Origin: Chitinophagaceae bacterium
GTDB taxonomy: Bacteria > Bacteroidota > Bacteroidia > Chitinophagales > Chitinophagaceae
Assembly: GCA_947378615.1 (NCBI GenBank)
Contig: CANCKV010000015.1
Location: forward strand, 1 to 15,886
DNA length: 15,886 bases
Reading direction: 5' to 3'
This document shows, one piece after another, positions 3,306 through 15,097 of this stretch (position 1 is its first letter; each line of letters opens with the position of its first letter). A model generated the notes under the pieces. That model saw only the letters and a program-made list of their open reading frames with translations, was not told the origin of the DNA and did not search any database. Both the position numbers and the translations under genes were made by a program.

Positions 3306-3545
3306 ATTTTCTTTCATAGAGAGTATTGAGAGCTAAATATTTCTTTACTGTTCTTATTTCTTCTGCATAAAAATAAGTTTCCACAATTTTAGTTTTATAT
3401 AGCAAACAGATATTCCCAATTTTATTCTTCTCAAAAGAAATTTTGCATTCAGTAGAGTAATAGCATTGATTAAATTAAAATCAGCTAATTATTTTTTTTT
3501 CAAATAAATTATTCATCAAAGAAATCTTCATCAAGGTCTAAAGGA
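3306..3545. other. AT-rich spacer without a recognisable gene
   Basis: No ORF, hairpin or promoter of note was seen in this stretch. On the minus strand, 3509-3550 reads LTPLDLDEDFFDE followed by TAA, which looks like the acidic C-terminal tail of a protein. It is cut off by an in-frame stop exactly where the 42-bp tandem array begins. This could be a gene remnant or chance. Confidence 0.5.
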
Positions 3546-3837
3546 GTGAGTTATTTCATAAAAAAGCTATTGCCTGTGAGGTCACACAAGAGTGAGTTAT
3601 TTCATAAAAGATGATGCCTCTGTGGTCACAGAAGTGAGTAGTTTCATAAAAGATCTAGCCTCTGTGGTCTAAAGAGTGACTTCTTTTATAAAAGATATTG
3701 CCTCTGTGGTCACAGAAGTGAGTTGTTTCATAAAAGATGTAGCCTCTGTGGTTTCATTAGTGAGTTATTTCATGAATGATATTGCCTCTGTGGTCTCTAG
3801 AGTGAGTAGTTTTATAAACTATGGAACCGGTAGGTCT
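3546..3837 (+). repeat. Tandem array of 42-bp units (about seven copies)
   Basis: Units begin at 3546, 3592, 3634, 3676, 3718, 3760 and 3802. The first is 46 bp, the next five are exactly 42 bp, and the last is degenerate. Two blocks are nearly invariant: GTGAGT then TTTCATAAAAGAT, and GCCTCTGTGGTC. They are separated by a variable triplet and followed by a variable hexamer; a variable dinucleotide lies inside the first block. In some units TCTGTGGTCACAGA forms a perfect 6-bp hairpin. In one plus-strand frame each unit encodes 14 residues of the form VSxFIKDxASVVxx, but a TAA in the third unit and the length change in the first break the frame. Edge units are the most diverged, as expected of an array homogenised internally. 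Confidence 0.93.
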
Positions 3838-6409: not shown

Positions 6410-6453
6410 AATTGTAATTTAGAGAGAATCTTTAACACAAGGTTATCAAGGGA

Positions 6454-6618
6454 GTAATAAGTAATAAGTTGTAAGTAATATGTTATAAGTTTAAAGCACA
6501 CTAAACTATGAAACAAATTACTCAGCTTGTTCTGTGGTATCACCACGAGAAACAAGGTATCATAAGCATGTAAATCAACCTCTTACTAACCTATTACTTA
6601 TAACCTATTACTTATTAC
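6454..6618. repeat. Spacer inverted repeat C with a nested hairpin
   Basis: The deoC to PIG-L spacer carries the word GTAATAAGTAATA at 6454-6466 and its complement at 6606-6618. Several more degenerate copies lie on each side (TTGTAAGTAATA; CCTATTACTTATAACC). Between the arms is an independent hairpin: CTTGTTCTGTGGT at 6526-6538 pairs with 6542-6556 around a 3-nt loop, with two single-base bulges. The right word run reaches the deoC stop codon at 6637. No T-tract follows either stem. Confidence 0.75.
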
Positions 6619-6636
6619 CTATAACCTATTACTTAA

Positions 6637-8459: not shown

Positions 8460-8622
8460 ATACACTCCATCAAATAGACGATGTTGATTGTAAGGAAACC
8501 TAATTTGGTGTAGAAGAAGGGGAAAGTGAATGAAGGAAAAGAATAAGAAAGATGATTCCTTTTGAATTGCCTAATGAATCATCTAAAGCAGTAAGGAATT
8601 ATAAAAAAATAATTTAAAGTAC

Positions 8623-8657
8623 AAAAAAGGGAGACAAACTTAATTGCCTCCCCTTTT
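8623..8657 (-). terminator. Intrinsic terminator after nifJ
   Basis: Read on the minus strand, a GC-rich stem GGGGAGGCAA pairs with TTTGTCTCCC around a loop of about 5 nt, with one mismatch or bulge, and is followed by six T residues. It starts 22 bp after the nifJ stop codon, which marks nifJ as the end of its transcript. Confidence 0.9.
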
Positions 8658-8678
8658 ATTCACCTTAAAATCAACAAT

Positions 8679-11600
8679 TTATAGAGCCTTCATAGCTTCT
8701 AAACGCTCCCATCTGTGAACGATTCCTTCTTTTGCCATTTCAAGTAACTCTAGCCCATTTTCAGGGTTACTGTTCTTGATGACAGCAAAACGATTTTCTT
8801 TATACATAAAGTCCTCTAATGCAACTGTAGGTTCCTTGCAATCGATAGTGAAACGTTTTCCCTTTTCATTTGCAGGATTATACCTGAACAATGGCCAATA
8901 ACCTGATTTAACAGCTTCTGCCTGATGAGCAAGTCCTTTTTCAATATTGAAACCATGAGAAATACAGTGACTGTACGCAATAATAATTGATGGACCAGGA
9001 TAAGCTTCTGCTTCCAAGATAGTCTTAAGCGTATGAACATCATTTGCACCAATTGCAATTTCTGCAACATAAGCAGTACCATGTGCCATTGCTTGCATTG
9101 CCAAATCTTTTTTACCAGTACGTTTACCTGCAGTTGCAAACTTAGCATTTGCACCTGTAGGAGTTGACTTAGATTTTTGTCCACCTGTATTTGAATACAC
9201 TTCGGTATCTAATACCATGATGTTTATGTTTTCTCCAGTTGACAATACATGGTCTAATCCACCATATCCAATATCATAAGCCCAACCATCACCACCTACG
9301 ATCCATACAGATTTGTTTTCTAAGAAGTCAACTACCTGTAACAATATGTTAGCTTTAGGTGAAGCAATATTTGCTAAGACAACTTTCAAATCAATAATTC
9401 TTGCATGAATTTCAGCGAAATCAGTTGGAGTTACTTGTGGATTTGCCAAGATACTTTCTACCAATCCAACACCTATTTCTACTTTCATTTCATTTAACAA
9501 TGAAATTGCATAAATCTTCTTTTGGTCGGAAGCTAACTTCATACCTAAACCGAACTCTGCATTATCTTCAAACAAAGAGTTAGCCCAAGCTGGACCTTGT
9601 CCTTCACAGTTTTTAGCCCAAGGAGTAGTAGGAAGATTTCCACCAAAAATGGAAGAACAACCAGTAGCATTAGCTACCAACATTCTACTACCAAATAATT
9701 GTGACATCAATTTCAAATATGGAGTTTCACCACAACCAGCACAAGCACCTGAGAACTCAAATAAAGGTTCGAGTAATTGAGAAGAACGAACTTGAGCAGG
9801 ATTCAAACGAGTACGATCTACTTGAGGAAGTCCTAAGAAGAAGTCCCAATTTTCTTTTCCTGCTTCTTTTAATGGAATTACATCTTCCATCTTCAAGCAT
9901 TTGTTTGCAGGTTCTTTCTTACTTGGAACAGGACAAACTTCCACACACAAATTACATCCTGTACAATCTTCTACAGAAACTTGTAGCGTGTAGATTTCAT
10001 CCGCCTTAGAAAATTCCTTTCCTACAGGATCTACATATCTGAATGTTGCAGGAGCATTACTCATCAATGAACGATCAACAACCTTTGGACGAATGGCCGC
10101 ATGAGGACAAATGATAAAGCATTTACCACATTGACTACAAGAAGCTTCATCCCAAACAGGAACAAATTCTGCCAAATTACTCTTTTCGTATTGAGTAGTT
10201 GCTGTTGGATAAGTTCCATCAAGTGGCATTGCACTAACTGGCAAATCATCACCTTCTCCTGCAATTATTTGAGATAATACATTTTTCACAAAATCAGAAG
10301 CTCCTTCCATTGATGGAACATCTAATCCTTTTTCGCCAACCTTATATTGACTATAATCTACTTTGAAAAGATTTTCTAAAGCTTTATCTACCGCATTGTA
10401 ATTCTTTTCAACCACTGCATCTCCCTTCTTACCATACGTTTTCTTGATAGATTTCTTGATATATCCTATTGCCTCATCTTGTGGTAACACGTTAGAGATA
10501 GCGAAGAAACAAGTTTGAAGAATACCGTTAATCTTAGAACCCATTCCTGTATCACGACCCACCTTAGATGCATCGATTACATAAAACTTCAATTCTTTTT
10601 CAACGATTTCTGTTTGAACAGCTTTTGGTAATACATTCCAGACTTCATCTTTTCCATAAGGAGAATTTAAAAGGAATGTTGCACCATGTTCAGCATTCTT
10701 AAGGATGTCATGTTTCATAATTAATTGAAACTGATGACAAGCTACAAAGTTTGCAGCGTTCACTAAATAAGAAGAACGAATGTTATGATTGCTGAAACGT
10801 AAGTGAGAAACAGTCAATGAACCTGATTTCTTAGAGTCATATACAAAATATCCTTGTACAGAATAGTCGGTTACATCTCCAATAATCTTGATTGTATTCT
10901 TGTTAGCACTAACAGTACCATCAGCACCTAGACCATAAAATAATCCTTTGAATAAATGATCCTCAATAGAGAATGTCTTATCATAATCAAGACTCAAATG
11001 AGTAACATCATCTTCGATACCCACTGTGAATTGTCTCTTAGGATTTGTCTTTTCTAATTCTTGGTAAACAGATTGAACCATTGCAGGAGTGAACTCCTTA
11101 GAACCTAAACCATATCTACCACCTATTACAACTGGTAATTGGGCAGATGCCCATCCTTGATGTAAGGCAGTCACTACATCCATATATAGAGGTTCGCCTA
11201 ATGCACCGTTTTCTTTGCAACGATCTAAAACTGCAATACCCTTTACAGAAGCAGGCAATGCGTTGATGAAATGAGAAACAGAGAAAGGACGGAAAAGATG
11301 TACGTGTAAACAACCTACTTTCTTACCTTGTTTATTCAAGTAATCGACTGTTTCATAAACAGCACCTGCACCCGAACCCATAATAATGATTACTTGTTCA
11401 GCATTTGCATCACCATAATAATCAAATAATTTATAAGCTCTTCCAGTTAGCTTTTCAAATTGATCCATCGTTTCAATAACAATCTCTGCCACTTTATCAT
11501 GATAGATATTACTAGCTTCACGACTTTGGAAGAACACATCTGGGTTTTGAGTAGTACCTCTGATTACAGGGTTTGAAGGATTTAAACCATGCAGACGATG

Positions 11601-12203
11601 ACGTGCCAAATCTTCTTCACTAATCATATCCTTGATAGTTTCATCAGGAATGATTTCTACCATATTCAATTCATGAGAAGTACGGAAACCATCAAAAATA
11701 TTCAAGAATGGAATTCTTGATTTTAAAGACGCAGAAGTAGCAATCATCGCCATATCGTGCGCTTCTTGAGGATTTGCACCGAACAACATAGCAAAACCAG
11801 TTTGTCTGACTGCCATCACATCACTATGATCACCGAAAATAGACAATGCGTGAGTTGCTAATGCCCTTGCAGAAATATGAAAAACTGTAGGTGTCAATTC
11901 TCCTGCAATCTTGTACATATTTGGAATCATCAATAATAATCCCTGAGAGCAAGTAAACGTTGAAGCCATTACACCCGATTGTAACGCACCATGAATGGCA
12001 CCGGCAGCACCGGCTTCACTCTGTAAGGTTACTACTCTAGTAATTTCGCCCCATATATTTTTCTTTTCTTGACTACTCCATTCTTCAGCCCATTCACCCA
12101 TTGGAGAGGAAGGGGTTATTGGATAAATAGCACAAACTTCACTAGTACGATAGGCGATGTGTGCGGCCGCCTGATTACCATCTGTTATCTCAATCTTTTT
12201 CAT
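8679..12203 (-). CDS. nifJ: Pyruvate:ferredoxin (flavodoxin) oxidoreductase
   Basis: A single-chain PFOR of 1174 residues. It oxidises pyruvate with CoA to acetyl-CoA and CO2 and reduces ferredoxin or flavodoxin, using thiamine diphosphate and three [4Fe-4S] clusters in the cytoplasm. From the chosen start, MKKIEITDGNQAAAHIAYR opens domain I, with AIYPITPSSPMGEW following. A two-cluster ferredoxin insert has CxxCxxCxxxC at 689-699 and 747-757. The third cluster's ligands are C821, C824, C849 and C1080, and GGDGWAYDIG at 970-979 binds thiamine diphosphate. The frame stays open to an ATG at 12264-12266, which would add 21 residues. I prefer 12203 because family proteins start here and because TACTTTTG and an AAAGGA lie just upstream. 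It stands alone between two terminators, which suggests that pyruvate oxidation can run with low-potential electron carriers. Confidence 0.97.
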   Translation of the reverse strand: MKKIEITDGNQAAAHIAYRTSEVCAIYPITPSSPMGEWAEEWSSQEKKNIWGEITRVVTLQSEAGAAGAIHGALQSGVMASTFTCSQGLLLMIPNMYKIAGELTPTVFHISARALATHALSIFGDHSDVMAVRQTGFAMLFGANPQEAHDMAMIATSASLKSRIPFLNIFDGFRTSHELNMVEIIPDETIKDMISEEDLARHRLHGLNPSNPVIRGTTQNPDVFFQSREASNIYHDKVAEIVIETMDQFEKLTGRAYKLFDYYGDANAEQVIIIMGSGAGAVYETVDYLNKQGKKVGCLHVHLFRPFSVSHFINALPASVKGIAVLDRCKENGALGEPLYMDVVTALHQGWASAQLPVVIGGRYGLGSKEFTPAMVQSVYQELEKTNPKRQFTVGIEDDVTHLSLDYDKTFSIEDHLFKGLFYGLGADGTVSANKNTIKIIGDVTDYSVQGYFVYDSKKSGSLTVSHLRFSNHNIRSSYLVNAANFVACHQFQLIMKHDILKNAEHGATFLLNSPYGKDEVWNVLPKAVQTEIVEKELKFYVIDASKVGRDTGMGSKINGILQTCFFAISNVLPQDEAIGYIKKSIKKTYGKKGDAVVEKNYNAVDKALENLFKVDYSQYKVGEKGLDVPSMEGASDFVKNVLSQIIAGEGDDLPVSAMPLDGTYPTATTQYEKSNLAEFVPVWDEASCSQCGKCFIICPHAAIRPKVVDRSLMSNAPATFRYVDPVGKEFSKADEIYTLQVSVEDCTGCNLCVEVCPVPSKKEPANKCLKMEDVIPLKEAGKENWDFFLGLPQVDRTRLNPAQVRSSQLLEPLFEFSGACAGCGETPYLKLMSQLFGSRMLVANATGCSSIFGGNLPTTPWAKNCEGQGPAWANSLFEDNAEFGLGMKLASDQKKIYAISLLNEMKVEIGVGLVESILANPQVTPTDFAEIHARIIDLKVVLANIASPKANILLQVVDFLENKSVWIVGGDGWAYDIGYGGLDHVLSTGENINIMVLDTEVYSNTGGQKSKSTPTGANAKFATAGKRTGKKDLAMQAMAHGTAYVAEIAIGANDVHTLKTILEAEAYPGPSIIIAYSHCISHGFNIEKGLAHQAEAVKSGYWPLFRYNPANEKGKRFTIDCKEPTVALEDFMYKENRFAVIKNSNPENGLELLEMAKEGIVHRWERLEAMKAL

Positions 12204-12229
12204 TCCTTTTGTATTTAAATAATTTTCAC

Positions 12230-12237
12230 CAAAAGTA
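12230..12237 (-). promoter_or_regulatory. Candidate -7 box for nifJ
   Basis: The minus strand reads TACTTTTG, an exact TAnnTTTG match, 26 bp before the ATG at 12201-12203. It lies inside the longer alternative ORF, so its use would exclude the upstream start at 12266. No obvious -33 TTTG was found at the standard spacing. Confidence 0.35.
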
Positions 12238-12432
12238 AAGTGCGGTTTTTTCTTAAATGCTGACATAAGTCAATAGTGCATATAATTCTTGCTTGCATTA
12301 TTGATTAATACTCTACGAAATCGTTAAATAAGTGAACATTAAGTGAAAAATAAGGCATTTTAACGAAACTTTTTTGTTACGAACTTAGAAAAAATTGGCA
12401 TAACGAGATTGAAGTAGTGAAAAATAGTGCAA

Positions 12433-12464
12433 TAAAAAAGGAGACAGTTTTTAATTGTCTCCTT
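12433..12464 (-). terminator. Intrinsic terminator closing the Crp-DUF2892-rhodanese operon
   Basis: A perfect 9-bp stem, AAGGAGACA at 12438-12446 with TGTCTCCTT at 12456-12464, closes a 9-nt loop. On the minus strand it is followed by a run of six T residues. It lies 29 bp after the stop of the last small gene, and no terminator occurs between the five genes upstream. Confidence 0.9.
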
Positions 12465-12492
12465 ATATAATTGTTCCCTCAATTATGTCTTT

Positions 12493-12714
12493 TTATTTGC
12501 CCTCTACTTTTTTAGTAGGGACAATACAATTACTGCCACTACATCCACCTGTAGCACAACAGCCTTTGTTTAATAATGCCATTATCACTATACCTCCTCC
12601 AAATAATGCAGCAGCCCATTGCTTTTCGTTGAAAGCTTGAATGATAACAATTACACCTAATACCATCGAAAGGATTCTTCTAAAATTCCATCCTGTTAAT
12701 ATTTGCGCTCTCAT
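12493..12714 (-). CDS. Small Cys-rich membrane protein, DUF2892/YgaP-tail-like
   Basis: A 73-residue protein with two hydrophobic segments (about 12-28 and 33-49) forming a membrane hairpin, preceded by GWNFRRILSMVLG. A cysteine cluster follows the second helix, GCCATGGCSGSNC, with C52, C53, C58 and C63. The layout of a short amphipathic head, a helical hairpin and then a Cys motif matches the DUF2892/YgaP-like membrane family seen with rhodaneses. Here the usual CPLY is replaced by NKGCC. The cysteines could carry persulfides or bind metal; this is inference. It is the last gene of the operon, 75 bp after the rhodanese, and is followed by the terminator. The start is ATG 12712-12714. Confidence 0.8.
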   Translation of the reverse strand: MRAQILTGWNFRRILSMVLGVIVIIQAFNEKQWAAALFGGGIVIMALLNKGCCATGGCSGSNCIVPTKKVEGK

Positions 12715-12720
12715 AATTTG

Positions 12721-12796
12721 TGATTTAAATGATTTAAAATGATTAAAATGATGAGATCATTTATATATAGACAACTCATAACTCATATCTCATAGT
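12721..12796. repeat. Spacer word repeat E with hairpin
   Basis: The rhodanese to Cys-rich gene spacer consists of reiterated words. TGATTTAAA, TGATTTAAAA and TGATTAAAA come in direct order, then a hairpin AAATGAT/ATCATTT at 12746-12762 with a 3-nt loop. Three ACTCATA-like copies run to 12796, and these include the rhodanese stop codon (12790-12792). Confidence 0.6.
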
Positions 12797-13101
12797 TTAT
12801 TTTGAAGGCTACTCCAACCTCCGCCATTAAATACATTATTATATCCCTTTGAAACTAAAATGCTTTTTGCAGAAGCACTACGCATTCCCGATGCACAACA
12901 AGTAATAATTGTAGCATCCTTTTTATATTTCGATATTCCATTTGCAATATTGTTTAATGGAATATTGACTGCCCCTTTAATATGACCTGATGCAAATTCG
13001 CCGGGACTTCTTACATCTATAATTATTGCACCATTCGCCTTTAATAATGCAAAATCTATTTTGGGACCACATCCAAATATTTTTTTAAGTTTTCCTATCA
13101 T
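12790..13101 (-). CDS. Single-domain rhodanese (sulfurtransferase)
   Basis: A 103-residue rhodanese domain that moves sulfane sulfur through a cysteine persulfide. It has the family landmarks IIIDVRSPGEFASGHIKGAVNIPL (residues 26-49, CH2A motif region) and the active-site loop CASGMRS at 69-75, where C69 is the expected catalytic cysteine; C68 precedes it directly. YNNVFNGGGW near the C-terminus is also typical. There is no signal peptide or membrane segment, so it is cytoplasmic, although the N-terminal KLKKIFGCG could lie on a membrane. In E. coli YgaP a rhodanese is fused to a DUF2892-like membrane hairpin; here that hairpin is encoded by the genes on both sides. The start is ATG 13099-13101. 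Confidence 0.94.
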   Translation of the reverse strand: MIGKLKKIFGCGPKIDFALLKANGAIIIDVRSPGEFASGHIKGAVNIPLNNIANGISKYKKDATIITCCASGMRSASAKSILVSKGYNNVFNGGGWSSLQNKL

Positions 13102-13102
13102 T

Positions 13103-13170
13103 TCAATTACGATTTACGAATTATCAATTACGATTCTTCAATTTAAATTATCAAATATTAATTATCAATT
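13103..13170. repeat. Spacer word repeat F
   Basis: Direct repeats fill this spacer. TCAATTACGATT occurs at 13103-13114 and 13124-13135. AATTATCAATT occurs at 13119-13129 and again at 13160-13170, where it overlaps the last codons of the upstream membrane-protein gene. This is another case where a spacer repeats the sequence around the upstream stop codon. Confidence 0.6.
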
Positions 13171-13364
13171 GTACAGCTATCTTCTAAACAACGCTTAGGG
13201 CGAATGAAACCAGAAATAACCACCACTGTGCCTATAACAAGCCCAATCCATCTACTTTCATCATGATTTATGATTCCATAATAGAGAAGTGCGCTACCAA
13301 ACGACCACCTAATCGCCCTATTAAACCATAATACAATTTTTGTTTCCCGAGTATCGCTTTTCAT
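13158..13364 (-). CDS. Small two-helix membrane protein, DUF2892-like
   Basis: A 68-residue protein from ATG 13362-13364. The frame is open for ten more codons to a TTG at 13392-13394, but that start would lie inside a hairpin and is less likely. Two hydrophobic stretches (about 18-33, RWSFGSALLYYGII, and 39-55, WIGLVIGTVVVISGFI) form a membrane hairpin. A tail with two cysteines follows, RPKRCLEDSC (C59, C64). The pattern resembles the DUF2892/YgaP-like group but lacks CPLY, so the family call is tentative. It lies between the canonical DUF2892 gene and the rhodanese on one strand, with spacers of 90 and 56 bp, which suggests a shared role in the sulfur-handling operon. Confidence 0.75.
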   Translation of the reverse strand: MKSDTRETKIVLWFNRAIRWSFGSALLYYGIINHDESRWIGLVIGTVVVISGFIRPKRCLEDSCTIDN

Positions 13365-13381
13365 TAATTTCAATTTAAACC

Positions 13382-13413
13382 GCTGATGAAACAATTGAGA
13401 TTATTTCATCAGC
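13382..13413. other. Perfect 10-bp hairpin in an operon spacer
   Basis: GCTGATGAAA at 13382-13391 pairs with TTTCATCAGC at 13404-13413 around a 12-nt loop, in the leader of the small membrane-protein gene. No T-tract follows on either strand. It could stabilise or space segments of the operon mRNA. Confidence 0.65.
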
Positions 13414-13454
13414 AGTAATAATTCATTACTACGACAATTCATCAATTCATTCGG

Positions 13455-13661
13455 TTATTTATCATTCTTGCAAGTCTTAATTCCCAATGGCATGTACAAA
13501 GGGCAAATACTAATCAGACTAGTAAAAATAAAGACACCCGCAAGTATTAATAAAATAGTGGCAGTCATTCCATTAATGATGTTCATAAAATAGCAAATTG
13601 CGATTACGACAGCAACCAAGACTCTGATGATTCTGTCAACAATACCCATGTTCTTTTTCAT
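13455..13661 (-). CDS. DUF2892 (YgaP-like) inner-membrane protein
   Basis: A 68-residue protein matching the Bacteroidota DUF2892 pattern closely: MKKNMGIVDRIIRVLVAVV, a second hydrophobic segment TATILLILAGVFIFTSLIS, then the diagnostic CPLY (C53 to Y56) and GIKTC with C64. Two helices (about 10-29 and 33-52) would form a membrane hairpin. The biochemical role of the family is not established. In E. coli YgaP the homologous hairpin anchors a rhodanese and has been linked to sulfur export or sulfur-species handling. It is the first gene after the Crp-type regulator, 63 bp away, with an operator-like palindrome and promoter-like box between them. The start is ATG 13659-13661. Confidence 0.88.
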   Translation of the reverse strand: MKKNMGIVDRIIRVLVAVVIAICYFMNIINGMTATILLILAGVFIFTSLISICPLYMPLGIKTCKNDK

Positions 13662-13664
13662 TAT

Positions 13665-13692
13665 AGTAATTTTTTGTTACAATGCAATACTA
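13665..13692 (-). promoter_or_regulatory. Promoter-like region upstream of the DUF2892 gene
   Basis: The minus strand has TAGTATTG at 13685-13692, one base off TAnnTTTG. An imperfect operator-like inverted repeat follows at 13665-13681 (AGTAA, seven bases, TTACA). If this -7 box is used, transcription would start near 13681, about 40 bp from the centre of the palindrome at 13713-13730. Confidence 0.3.
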
Positions 13693-13712
13693 CATAGCTG
13701 AAAAAAGAAATT

Positions 13713-13730
13713 ATGTAACAAAAGTTACAT
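13713..13730. promoter_or_regulatory. Crp/Fnr-type palindromic operator candidate
   Basis: ATGTAACAAAAGTTACAT is a perfect inverted repeat with 7-bp arms and a 4-bp centre. Its core TGTAA-N6-TTACA has the same geometry as the E. coli CRP site TGTGA-N6-TCACA. It overlaps the stop codon of the Crp/Fnr gene (13725-13727) and lies 52 bp upstream of the DUF2892 start, so it could serve as an internal operator for the downstream genes. Confidence 0.55.
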
Positions 13731-14384
13731 ATCCTTCATGATTTTTATTTGGCTACGGGATAAAAGCAATTTATTATCGTTTTCAAGCTTCTTTAATAGT
13801 CGAGAAATCACTTCTCTCGATGTGGCCAATTCATCTGCAATTTGTTGATGGGATAGGTTTAAGAGAGTGGAACCGGTTGTTTTTACCTTTTCTTTTAGAT
13901 AGGAAACAAGTCGTTCATCTAATTTTTGAAAGGCAATATGGTCAATTGTCTTTAGTAAATCATTAAATCGAAGTCGAATAGTCCTCATTACAAATGTTTT
14001 CCACGTTGGATATTTTGACATCCACGCATCCATAACAGTAAAGGGCAAGGATAACATTTCAACATCATCCTCAGCTACAGCTTTTATTTCGCTAGGAAAA
14101 TGTTCCATACAGCATGTAAAGGTCATAGCACAACTTTCGGCAGGGTTGATATAATAGAGTAATATTTCCCTGCCTTTTTCATCTATCCTAGTTACTTTAA
14201 TAGAGCCTGACAATATAATTGGCATTTGTTTTATCAATTGCCCAATTTCAATGATGACACTTCCTGCTGGAATTGATAAATGCTTTGCCTTTGCCTCTAT
14301 TTCTTTGATGAGTTCAGGTTCAAAAAGATATTCAAATTGTTCCTTAATATTTACTTTTTCCTGTGCAATATCGTAATTCATCAT
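13725..14384 (-). CDS. Crp/Fnr family regulator with SCAMTFTCC motif
   Basis: A regulator of 219 residues from the ATG at 14382-14384. ATGs at 14379-14381 and 14391-14393 and a GTG at 14409-14411 are alternatives. Numbered from the GTG, a cyclic-nucleotide-like beta-barrel (about 45-125) contains PIILSGSIKVTRIDEKGREILLYYI and then ESCAMTFTCCMEHFPSEIKAVAE, with C94, C100 and C101. The Glu/Arg pair that binds cAMP in CRP is absent. A C-terminal winged helix reads LSHQQIADELATSREVISRLLKKLE, with R199, E200 and R204 where CRP has R180, E181 and R185. There are no FNR-type N-terminal cysteines. The family recurs in Bacteroidota. The three cysteines and the sulfur-gene neighbours suggest thiol-based sensing, which is inference. 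It is probably the first gene of the operon ending at 12433. Confidence 0.93.
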   Translation of the reverse strand: MMNYDIAQEKVNIKEQFEYLFEPELIKEIEAKAKHLSIPAGSVIIEIGQLIKQMPIILSGSIKVTRIDEKGREILLYYINPAESCAMTFTCCMEHFPSEIKAVAEDDVEMLSLPFTVMDAWMSKYPTWKTFVMRTIRLRFNDLLKTIDHIAFQKLDERLVSYLKEKVKTTGSTLLNLSHQQIADELATSREVISRLLKKLENDNKLLLSRSQIKIMKDM

Positions 14385-14426
14385 AAAACCCATTTTATAA
14401 AAGAAAGTCACTTATTTTAATCTCGC

Positions 14427-14434
14427 CAAAATTA
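14427..14434 (-). promoter_or_regulatory. Candidate -7 box for the Crp/Fnr gene
   Basis: The minus strand reads TAATTTTG, an exact TAnnTTTG match. It is 42 bp before the ATG at 14384 and 15 bp before the GTG at 14411. A -33 element would fall at the proximal edge of the 21-bp repeat array, but no TTTG is visible there. Confidence 0.4.
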
Positions 14435-14451
14435 AGGGTTTGGAATATGAA

Positions 14452-14702
14452 TGAAATTATGATGTTCCATTTTCAACTAATTTGAAAGCATTTTGAGTTT
14501 ATTTGGACTCAATATCAGGTGAAAATATCATATTCCAAACTTATTCTGTCCGATTTTCACCTGATTTGAAAGCAATTTCAGGTCATTTGAAAGCATTTTC
14601 AGGTGATTACATCATTACCCAACTTATTCTGTCACATTTTCACCTGATTTGAAAGCATTTTCAGCTGATTTAATAATTAAATCACCCGAAAAATGATTCA
14701 AA
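14452..14702. repeat. Phased 21-bp repeat array in three 84-bp super-units
   Basis: Near-palindromic 8-mers of the form TCASSTGA occur at 14515, 14557, 14578, 14599, 14640, 14661 and 14682, with weaker forms at 14473 and 14494. Start-to-start distances are 21, 21, 42, 21, 21, 41, 21 and 21. Within the units the 8-mer is mostly followed by TTTGAAAGCAWTT. Every fourth slot (near 14452, 14536 and 14620) holds a different unit, AACTTATTCTGTC in its two best copies. The array is therefore twelve 21-bp slots in three repeats of about 84 bp. A 10-bp inverted repeat (14441-14450 with 14528-14537) encloses the first super-unit. No long ORF crosses it. It lies directly upstream of the Crp/Fnr promoter. 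Confidence 0.92.
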
Positions 14703-14747
14703 TTAACTCATAAAAGAATGAAATAACGCTTAATCGCATTGATTCAA

Positions 14748-14800
14748 GCTGAATTGAGTTGATTTTAAGTTGAAATTAATTTCATTCAGCCTCTTTTTTT
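14748..14800 (+). terminator. Weak plus-strand terminator-like structure
   Basis: GCTGAAT at 14748-14754 pairs with ATTCAGC at 14784-14790. An inner GAAATTAATTTC palindrome lies between them, and CTCTTTTTTT follows. The stem is short and the loop large. TTGAGTTGA at 14754-14762 can alternatively pair with 14819-14827. No gene ends upstream on this strand, so it would only matter if the repeat array is transcribed. Confidence 0.25.
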
Positions 14801-14899
14801 GCGAATACAAACAACTTTTCAACTCAAATCAAACACAACCAATAAAATGAAATGCTTAAACTTTTAGTGACGGTGAGACGGAATTGAATTGGACTACTT

Positions 14900-15097
14900 C
14901 TAGCCTCTAATTCGTTTAAGGAGCAAAGGTGAAAGTATGTTTTTTATAAAAAATTCACCTGGTGCATATATGTTTTTTGTTTCTATAGTGGGATTACCAA
15001 TCCTATAAGGGGGCTTGAAGTCCTTATAGGGTTTAACAGTCAGCGAAAAACTTTCATGCACCCAAATAGAATTAAAATCAATTAACGAATGTGGCAA
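14900..15097 (-). CDS. Doubtful small ORF, unknown protein
   Basis: An open frame of 65 codons from a TTG at 15095-15097; the frame is open back to a TAA at 15176-15178, about 91 codons in all, but has no ATG. The peptide, including HSLIDFNSIWVHESF and KPYKDFKPPYRIGNP, has a protein-like composition but no motif I recognise. A 9-bp inverted repeat, CCTATAAGG at 15002-15010 with CCTTATAGG at 15022-15030, lies inside it and underlies the PYKDFKPPYR stretch. It could be a decayed gene fragment or a chance frame. Nothing else was seen from 14828 to 15278 apart from AT-rich spacer. Confidence 0.2.
   Translation of the reverse strand: MPHSLIDFNSIWVHESFSLTVKPYKDFKPPYRIGNPTIETKNIYAPGEFFIKNILSPLLLKRIRG

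What the first reader, a model, noticed from the sequence alone, without database searches (positions are those of the whole stretch)
14452..14702. Helically phased 21-bp operator-like array with an 84-bp super-period upstream of a Crp/Fnr gene
Seven strong TCASSTGA boxes plus two weak ones fall on a 21-bp grid. The distances are 21, 21, 42, 21, 21, 41, 21 and 21, which is two turns of B-DNA. Every fourth slot holds a different conserved unit (AACTTATTCTGTC). A simple slipped satellite would not need three levels of order: palindromic core, fixed 13-bp linker and skipped fourth slot. The boxes would all face the same side of the helix, as in a cooperative protein filament, a bending array or a partition/silencing centre. 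The position beside the regulator's promoter suggests control of that gene, though a mobile or genome-wide repeat is also possible.
Basis: partly seen in the sequence, partly recalled or inferred. Interest (0 to 1): 0.72.

Follow-up and report, generated by a model that had tools for sequence, protein, structure and literature searches.

The report
Dispersed repeat built of 21-bp slots
The repeats beside this regulator gene are one copy of a scattered non-coding element laid out on a 21-base grid, and many unrelated repeats between genes in this freshwater bacterial group share the same 21-base step, for a reason still unknown.

Summary
In detail: boxes lie on a 21-bp grid with an 83/84-bp super-period. 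It is incomplete: the 'skipped' fourth slot also carries a weak core, and the grid runs on, fading, to about 14815.

The Crp-operator reading fails. In same-genus genome G008 the Crp ortholog (93% identical) is syntenic with window 8615-14447, and similarity stops where the array begins. Array plus leader form a dispersed intergenic element: 2 places in the own genome, 7 in G008. It is present at one locus and absent at the matching one. Cores are not more conserved than linkers.

The larger finding is genus-wide. Of 33 intergenic arrays with period 18 bp or more in 353 kb of the own genome, 25 have a period that is an exact multiple of 21; in 12 other genus genomes 25 of 38. Most are unrelated in sequence. 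Exact repeats at 21-bp lags are 8- to 26-fold denser than outside the genus.

Best reading: a BrickBuilt-like minisatellite element growing by whole slots. What sets 21 bp is open.

The parts
14452..14702 (-). Array proper: slots with CANNTG-like cores, 2.4 copies of an 83/84-bp unit (14468-14671 by Tandem Repeats Finder)
14536..14543 (-). First 'fourth slot': CAAACTTA, a diverged core on the 21-bp grid
14619..14626 (-). Second 'fourth slot': CCAACTTA, a diverged core, one bp off the grid
14703..14823 (-). Degenerate leader in the same 21-bp register, not reported by Tandem Repeats Finder
14824..14947 (-). Left arm of the element (non-grid), alignable with C234, C14 and C220; the outer limit is not sharply defined
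   Evidence: L031 3312-3760 matches window 14947-14459
14948..15063 (-). Further stretch shared only with the G008:C220 copy (whole match 15063-14455, 77%); by eye it holds a degenerate GGTGCA...TGCACCC hairpin repeat
   Evidence: hairpin read
13725..14411 (-). Crp/Fnr-type gene beside the element; not part of it

Best explanation
The feature is one copy of a dispersed, non-coding, intergenic repeat of about 0.5 kb made of 21-bp slots: a degenerate leader plus a younger array whose four-slot (83/84-bp) unit has been duplicated. Shown: several copies at unrelated loci in two species, presence and absence at matching loci, and length differences of one, two or four slots between the closest copies. 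Inferred: slots are gained and lost by replication slippage or unequal recombination, which keeps the 21-bp step and yields 42- and 84-bp higher-order units; the whole piece spreads like a passively mobilised element (compare BrickBuilt) and does not serve the Crp gene. Neighbouring slots are partly complementary, so stem-loops may form and help slippage. The same step in dozens of unrelated intergenic arrays of the genus points to a shared process or constraint that sets the unit length; whether that is the helix (two turns), a protein or a replication enzyme is not shown.
For: Copies: own genome C15 and C234; G008 at 7 places; 2 of 13 genus genomes with a longer query; shared flanks beyond the array. 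Presence/absence: absent upstream of the syntenic G008 Crp ortholog; present after the prolyl-oligopeptidase-like gene in G008:C37 and absent at the matching G000:C344; shared at C234/C14. Slot-sized differences: 41 bp (C234 vs C14), 21+20 bp (C234 vs C60), 83 bp (window vs C37 and vs C60). Non-coding: stops in all six frames of 8 copies. Cores not conserved: 110/540 changes against 249/1759 in linkers over 9 overlapping pairs, 37/180 against 83/588 over 3 independent pairs. Genus-wide 21-bp step. Units of 42 bp and more contain diverged 21-bp units (lag-21 identity 0.475 against 0.265 shuffled, 17 units) and units longer than 42 bp a lag-42 identity of 0.655 (6 units).
Against: No terminal inverted repeat, target duplication or transposase was shown for this element. 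The synteny break at the window copy could be an assembly join in a 590-contig draft. Slippage alone does not explain why unrelated arrays share 21 bp, nor why the diverged leader keeps its register. Among distant pairs gaps of other sizes are common: over 28 pairs 21 of 66 gaps of 8 bp or more lie within 1 of a multiple of 21. C14, C37 and C60 have no gap at all in 336 bp at 12-13% divergence, which may mean selection on spacing, against neutrality.
Confidence: 0.75

Rival explanations
1. Operator array: a dimeric protein binds each palindromic core; two-turn spacing puts all sites on one face of the helix and controls the adjacent Crp gene.
Against: No array upstream of Crp in G008 or in the 6 other related loci with upstream DNA; the array lies at other loci in G008; cores vary more than linkers.
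Confidence: 0.03
2. Architectural array: a nucleoid-type protein coats intergenic 21-bp arrays of any sequence, reading spacing and not sequence, and selection keeps the phase.
For: Unrelated arrays share the step. C14, C37 and C60: 0 gaps against about 65 independent substitutions (my estimate), while two ordinary intergenic stretches between G000 and G008 have 19 gaps per 166 substitutions (Fisher p 0.005).
Against: A non-grid flank of C234/C14 also has 0 gaps in 29 substitutions, and window-C220 has 10 gaps in 45. No 10.5-bp A/T harmonic. Arrays show no preference for gene orientation. No candidate protein.
Confidence: 0.12
3. Structured RNA or stem-loop element: pairs of slots form hairpins that act in RNA or single-stranded DNA.
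For: RNAalifold, window plus strand: 3' parts of 8 copies z -3.31, of 7 copies z -3.41, five whole copies z -3.47, each with 0.5% of 200 column shuffles as good. Units of 42 bp and more fold better than controls: mean z -1.71, SEM 0.45, n=17; other-period arrays 0.09, n=21.
Against: The other five of the 8 set/strand tests gave z -0.72, -0.83, -1.32, -2.25 and -2.58; no test has more than 4 pairs changed on both sides. Plain 21-bp units show little (mean z -0.41, n=21). No Rfam match at the gathering score. Column shuffles do not keep the tandem repeats.
Confidence: 0.08
4. Nothing but slippage: 21 bp is an accident of one old repeat family, and the genus-wide 21 is inherited by spread of related arrays.
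For: Some arrays are related across the sample (families of 4, 4, 3, 2 and 2); dispersed copies exist.
Against: 70 arrays fall into 60 families at blastn-short E 1e-4, although very diverged relatives would be missed; 21-bp units have no common sub-period.
Confidence: 0.2

Closest known systems
BrickBuilt MITE/minisatellite of Porphyromonas gingivalis (PMC4596501; abstract, section 5 and part 1 of section 7 read)
   Same: Bacteroidota; dispersed, always intergenic; short tandem unit (23 nt there) inside a leader and a tail; imperfect repeats, variable copy number, partial copies. The paper also reports 41-nt repeats in MITE464/PgRS, whose flanks are themselves repetitive.
   Different: Unit 21 bp with an 83/84-bp super-period; the leader lies in the same register as the array; no terminal inverted repeat or matching IS shown here; no sequence relation tested. 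BrickBuilt is one family, whereas here the step is shared by dozens of families.
TAACTGA heptamer direct repeats of Beggiatoaceae, Cyanobacteria and some Bacteroidetes (PMC4679880; abstract and passages read)
   Same: Intergenic short-unit direct repeats; the heptamer class seen beside the 21-bp class here is of that kind.
   Different: 7-bp units of one sequence; after removal of 4 heptameric units the 21-bp units have no 7-bp sub-period.
REP/BIME mosaics with Y1 transposases (PMC2817692; abstract in a search listing only)
   Same: Extragenic, palindrome-bearing mosaics; Y1_Tnp genes in 12 of 13 genus genomes.
   Different: No link between Y1_Tnp genes and this element was tested or seen; none was detected in the own genome.

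Membership tests
BrickBuilt-like MITE with internal minisatellite | Several copies at unrelated intergenic sites | tested here: met
BrickBuilt-like MITE with internal minisatellite | Tandem short unit with conserved leader/tail | tested here: met
   Leader and end shared between copies; unit 21, not 23
BrickBuilt-like MITE with internal minisatellite | Terminal inverted repeats and target-site duplication | tested here: inconclusive
   Ends differ between copies in the alignment and no clear terminal repeat was seen by eye; no precise empty site
BrickBuilt-like MITE with internal minisatellite | Presence/absence at matching loci | tested here: met
Crp operator array | Conserved upstream of orthologs of the gene | tested here: not met
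   0 of 7 related loci with upstream DNA
Crp operator array | Boxes more conserved than spacers | tested here: not met
Crp operator array | A protein that binds the boxes | not testable with these tools
   needs footprint or ChIP
Curvature-phased (10.5-bp A-tract) array | 10.5-bp A/T harmonic in the units | tested here: not met
   z -1.04 in 25 units of 21 bp, 0.17 in 17 longer units
Coding repeat (7-residue repeat protein) | Open frame through the array | tested here: not met
   3 to 13 stops in each of the six frames of 8 copies
Known structured RNA | Rfam match at the gathering score | tested here: not met
   0 matches in the window

The most novel reading that the evidence does not exclude
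This genus has a lineage-specific 'two-turn ruler': a protein, replication or repair process that makes or keeps intergenic DNA in 21-bp steps whatever the sequence, giving dozens of unrelated arrays with 21-, 42- and 84-bp units and holding the slot spacing even where the repeats have diverged.
Probability: 0.22. Interest if true: 0.78.

Novelty: new variant of a known kind. Interest (0 to 1): 0.5.

Why it matters
Bacterial minisatellites are usually taken as accidents of slippage with arbitrary unit length. A genus in which most sampled intergenic arrays share one 21-bp step across unrelated sequences, with doubling to 42 and 84, makes the question 'what sets repeat unit length' testable: helix geometry, a DNA-binding protein, or the replication machinery. 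It also offers many variable loci for typing these freshwater bacteria.

Tried and rejected
Pattern TCASSTGANNTTTGAAAGCA found nothing because its NN was a wrong spacing of mine; one search used the right one. A 7-bp origin of the 21-bp units: the 7-bp harmonic was strong at first (z 5.7) but came from 4 heptameric units; without them lag 7 is at background in 21 units (0.265 against 0.274). Coding and curvature phasing were rejected. No similar DNA among 72,556 plasmid records (records of the same or a very near genome may be left out there). Y1_Tnp genes led nowhere. The G047 match (44 bp, E 8e-4) shows no array around it and was set aside. The k/21 overtones of Plasmodium (PMC3287587, abstract only) are explained there as encoding artefacts and are no parallel.

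Limits of the counts: the G008 loci L059-L065 were fetched because they hold the element, and 6 of the 25 exact-21 arrays of 'genus others' are the element itself. In genus genomes other than the own, lags that are not multiples of 7 are as frequent as 21k lags (983 against 943). The Fisher test for multiples above 21 was typed with 20 of 71, while one search gives 19 of 71 (own 10, others 9) against 1 of 29 outside, so I quote the counts only. I did not read the genes around C46 and C109.

Full report
What is there. Between the Crp/Fnr-type gene (13725-14411, minus strand) and an open frame for an unassigned protein (from 15255; no Pfam match) lies an array of degenerate boxes. The claimed spacing is exact, and the 21- and 83/84-bp periodicity is far above shuffles. 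Read on the minus strand and wrapped at 21 bp, the pattern does not stop at 14702. A path that scores TCASSTGA-like cores and allows spacings of 19-23 bp finds 18 slots spaced 20-21 up to about 14815; it scores 134 against 84 (SD 3.7) for shuffles put through the same search. The first and last slots are very weak. The 'fourth slot' carries TAAGTTTG/TAAGTTGG. The leader, not reported by Tandem Repeats Finder, shows lag 21 at z 3.3 in the window copy, 2.3 to 4.1 in six other copies and 0.7 in C46.

It is a dispersed element. The array has one relative in the own genome (C234) and seven places in the same-genus genome G008. Of 59 genomes searched, own included, 3 have a hit, the third a doubtful 44-bp match. 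With a longer query 2 of 13 genus genomes match. Shared sequence goes beyond the array. I read the neighbours at C234 and at five of the seven G008 places: they differ (hypothetical protein, trypsin-like, prolyl-oligopeptidase-like, xylanase-like, TonB-receptor-like; my reading of the frames).

It does not belong to Crp. The G008 Crp ortholog is 93% identical and lies in DNA 88% identical to window 8615-14447, where similarity ends. None of the 7 related Crp loci with upstream DNA has the array. The DNA on the other side of the window copy (from 15122) matches G008:C232, where it follows an S9-peptidase-like gene without the element. So the element sits at a break in gene order; an assembly join in this draft cannot be excluded. 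At the prolyl-oligopeptidase-like locus the reverse holds: the element is in G008:C37, and the matching G000:C344 gives no match to it. C234 and C14 share one locus (1330 bp, 83%).

How copies differ. Among close copies, length differences are slot-sized: 41 bp, 21+20 bp, 83 bp. Over all 28 pairs, 21 of 66 gaps of 8 bp or more lie within 1 of a multiple of 21, so distant pairs are noisy. Core positions change more than linkers: 110/540 against 249/1759 over 9 overlapping pairs; 37/180 against 83/588 over 3 independent pairs. C14, C37 and C60 have no gap in 336 bp with 42 to 45 substitutions per pair, while two ordinary intergenic stretches between G000 and G008 have 19 gaps per 166 substitutions (Fisher p 0.005 with 65 as my estimate of independent substitutions). 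Against that, a non-grid flank of C234/C14 also has none in 29, and window-C220 has 10 gaps in 45. Constraint on spacing is possible, not shown.

The wider pattern. In 353 kb of the own genome, exact 9-mer recurrences in non-coding DNA fall mostly at multiples of 7: 1024 at multiples of 7 other than 21k, 920 at 21k, 261 elsewhere. The largest lags are 14:430, 42:341, 21:245, 28:231 and 84:175; most lags that are not multiples of 7 have 0 to 12, with 41:37, 79:31 and 83:45 as exceptions. In 12 other genus genomes the figures are 193, 943 and 983, so there other lags are as common as 21k; many of these come from 41-, 81- and 9-bp arrays. Two classes are mixed: heptamer arrays, and arrays of 21, 42, 63 and 84 bp. 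Without 4 heptameric units, 21-bp units have no 7-bp sub-period, while longer units are diverged 21-bp multimers. In 13 genus genomes, 70 arrays within 1 bp of a multiple of 21 (60 of them non-coding) fall into 60 sequence families. Among intergenic arrays with period 18 or more, exact multiples of 21 are 25 of 33 (own) and 25 of 38 (12 other genus genomes). Outside they are 6 of 12 (other genera of the family), 4 of 11 (other families) and 2 of 6 (named loci); of these 12, 11 have period 21 and one 147, and several look heptameric. 21k lags per 100 kb of non-coding DNA are 1726 and 1194 (2094 in five named loci close to the genus) against 146, 106 and 67 outside. The bias thus exists weakly outside and is 8- to 26-fold denser in the genus. 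Only part of each genome was sampled.

What could set 21 bp. Coding is excluded for this element. Curvature phasing is not seen. Position relative to genes is neutral: of 50 arrays 32 lie in tandem gaps, 14 divergent, 4 convergent, against 63%, 24% and 13% of gap DNA. Self-complementarity is raised in units of 42 bp and more (mean z -1.71, SEM 0.45, n=17), little in 21-bp units (-0.41, SEM 0.21, n=21) and not in other-period arrays (0.09, n=21). RNAalifold on the copies gives z from -0.72 to -3.47 over 8 set/strand tests, with at most 4 pairs changed on both sides. Stem-loops between slots may help slippage but do not explain 21.

Known relatives. The nearest published case found is BrickBuilt of P. 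gingivalis (PMC4596501: abstract, section 5 and part 1 of section 7 read). TAACTGA heptamers (PMC4679880: abstract and passages) resemble the heptamer class. Eight searches of the open-access library listed no title or abstract that describes a 21-bp intergenic step in bacteria; subscription papers are mostly missing from it.

Organism. Close Crp matches are records titled Chitinophagaceae bacterium; G008 is probably isolate JR-MC-I-240519-121, since the Crp match has the same contig number and coordinates. The own genome is 590 contigs and 67.7% complete.

Verdict.

Noticed in passing
L061:7919-8161 (G008:C37); many places in G000: A 240-bp dispersed repeat: 53 matching pieces on 37 contigs of the own genome (40 of 207 candidates scored, so a lower bound). 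20 aligned copies show terminal inverted repeats of about 32 bp with TA at the ends; it looks like a MITE of IS630/Tc1 type (type recalled, not tested).
   Followed up: partly
G000:C344 (L229, about 2360-2720); L059:5950-6050; L031:2577-2679; window about 14954-15063: A hairpin-bearing repeat of about 100-150 bp with GGGTGCA ... TGCACCC ends at several loci, degenerate in the window.
   Followed up: no
window 3535-3818: A 42/84/126-bp intergenic array, unrelated to this one, with a relative at G000:C7 (L038:1179-1364).
   Followed up: partly
window 6453-6635, 13103-13170; many contigs: Heptamer-based arrays (periods 7, 14, 21, 28) are common in non-coding DNA of this genome and also occur outside the genus.
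   Followed up: partly
G008:C177 and C224 (L089, L094): G008 carries two close Crp homologs, 93% and 74% identical to the window protein; neither has the array upstream.
   Followed up: partly
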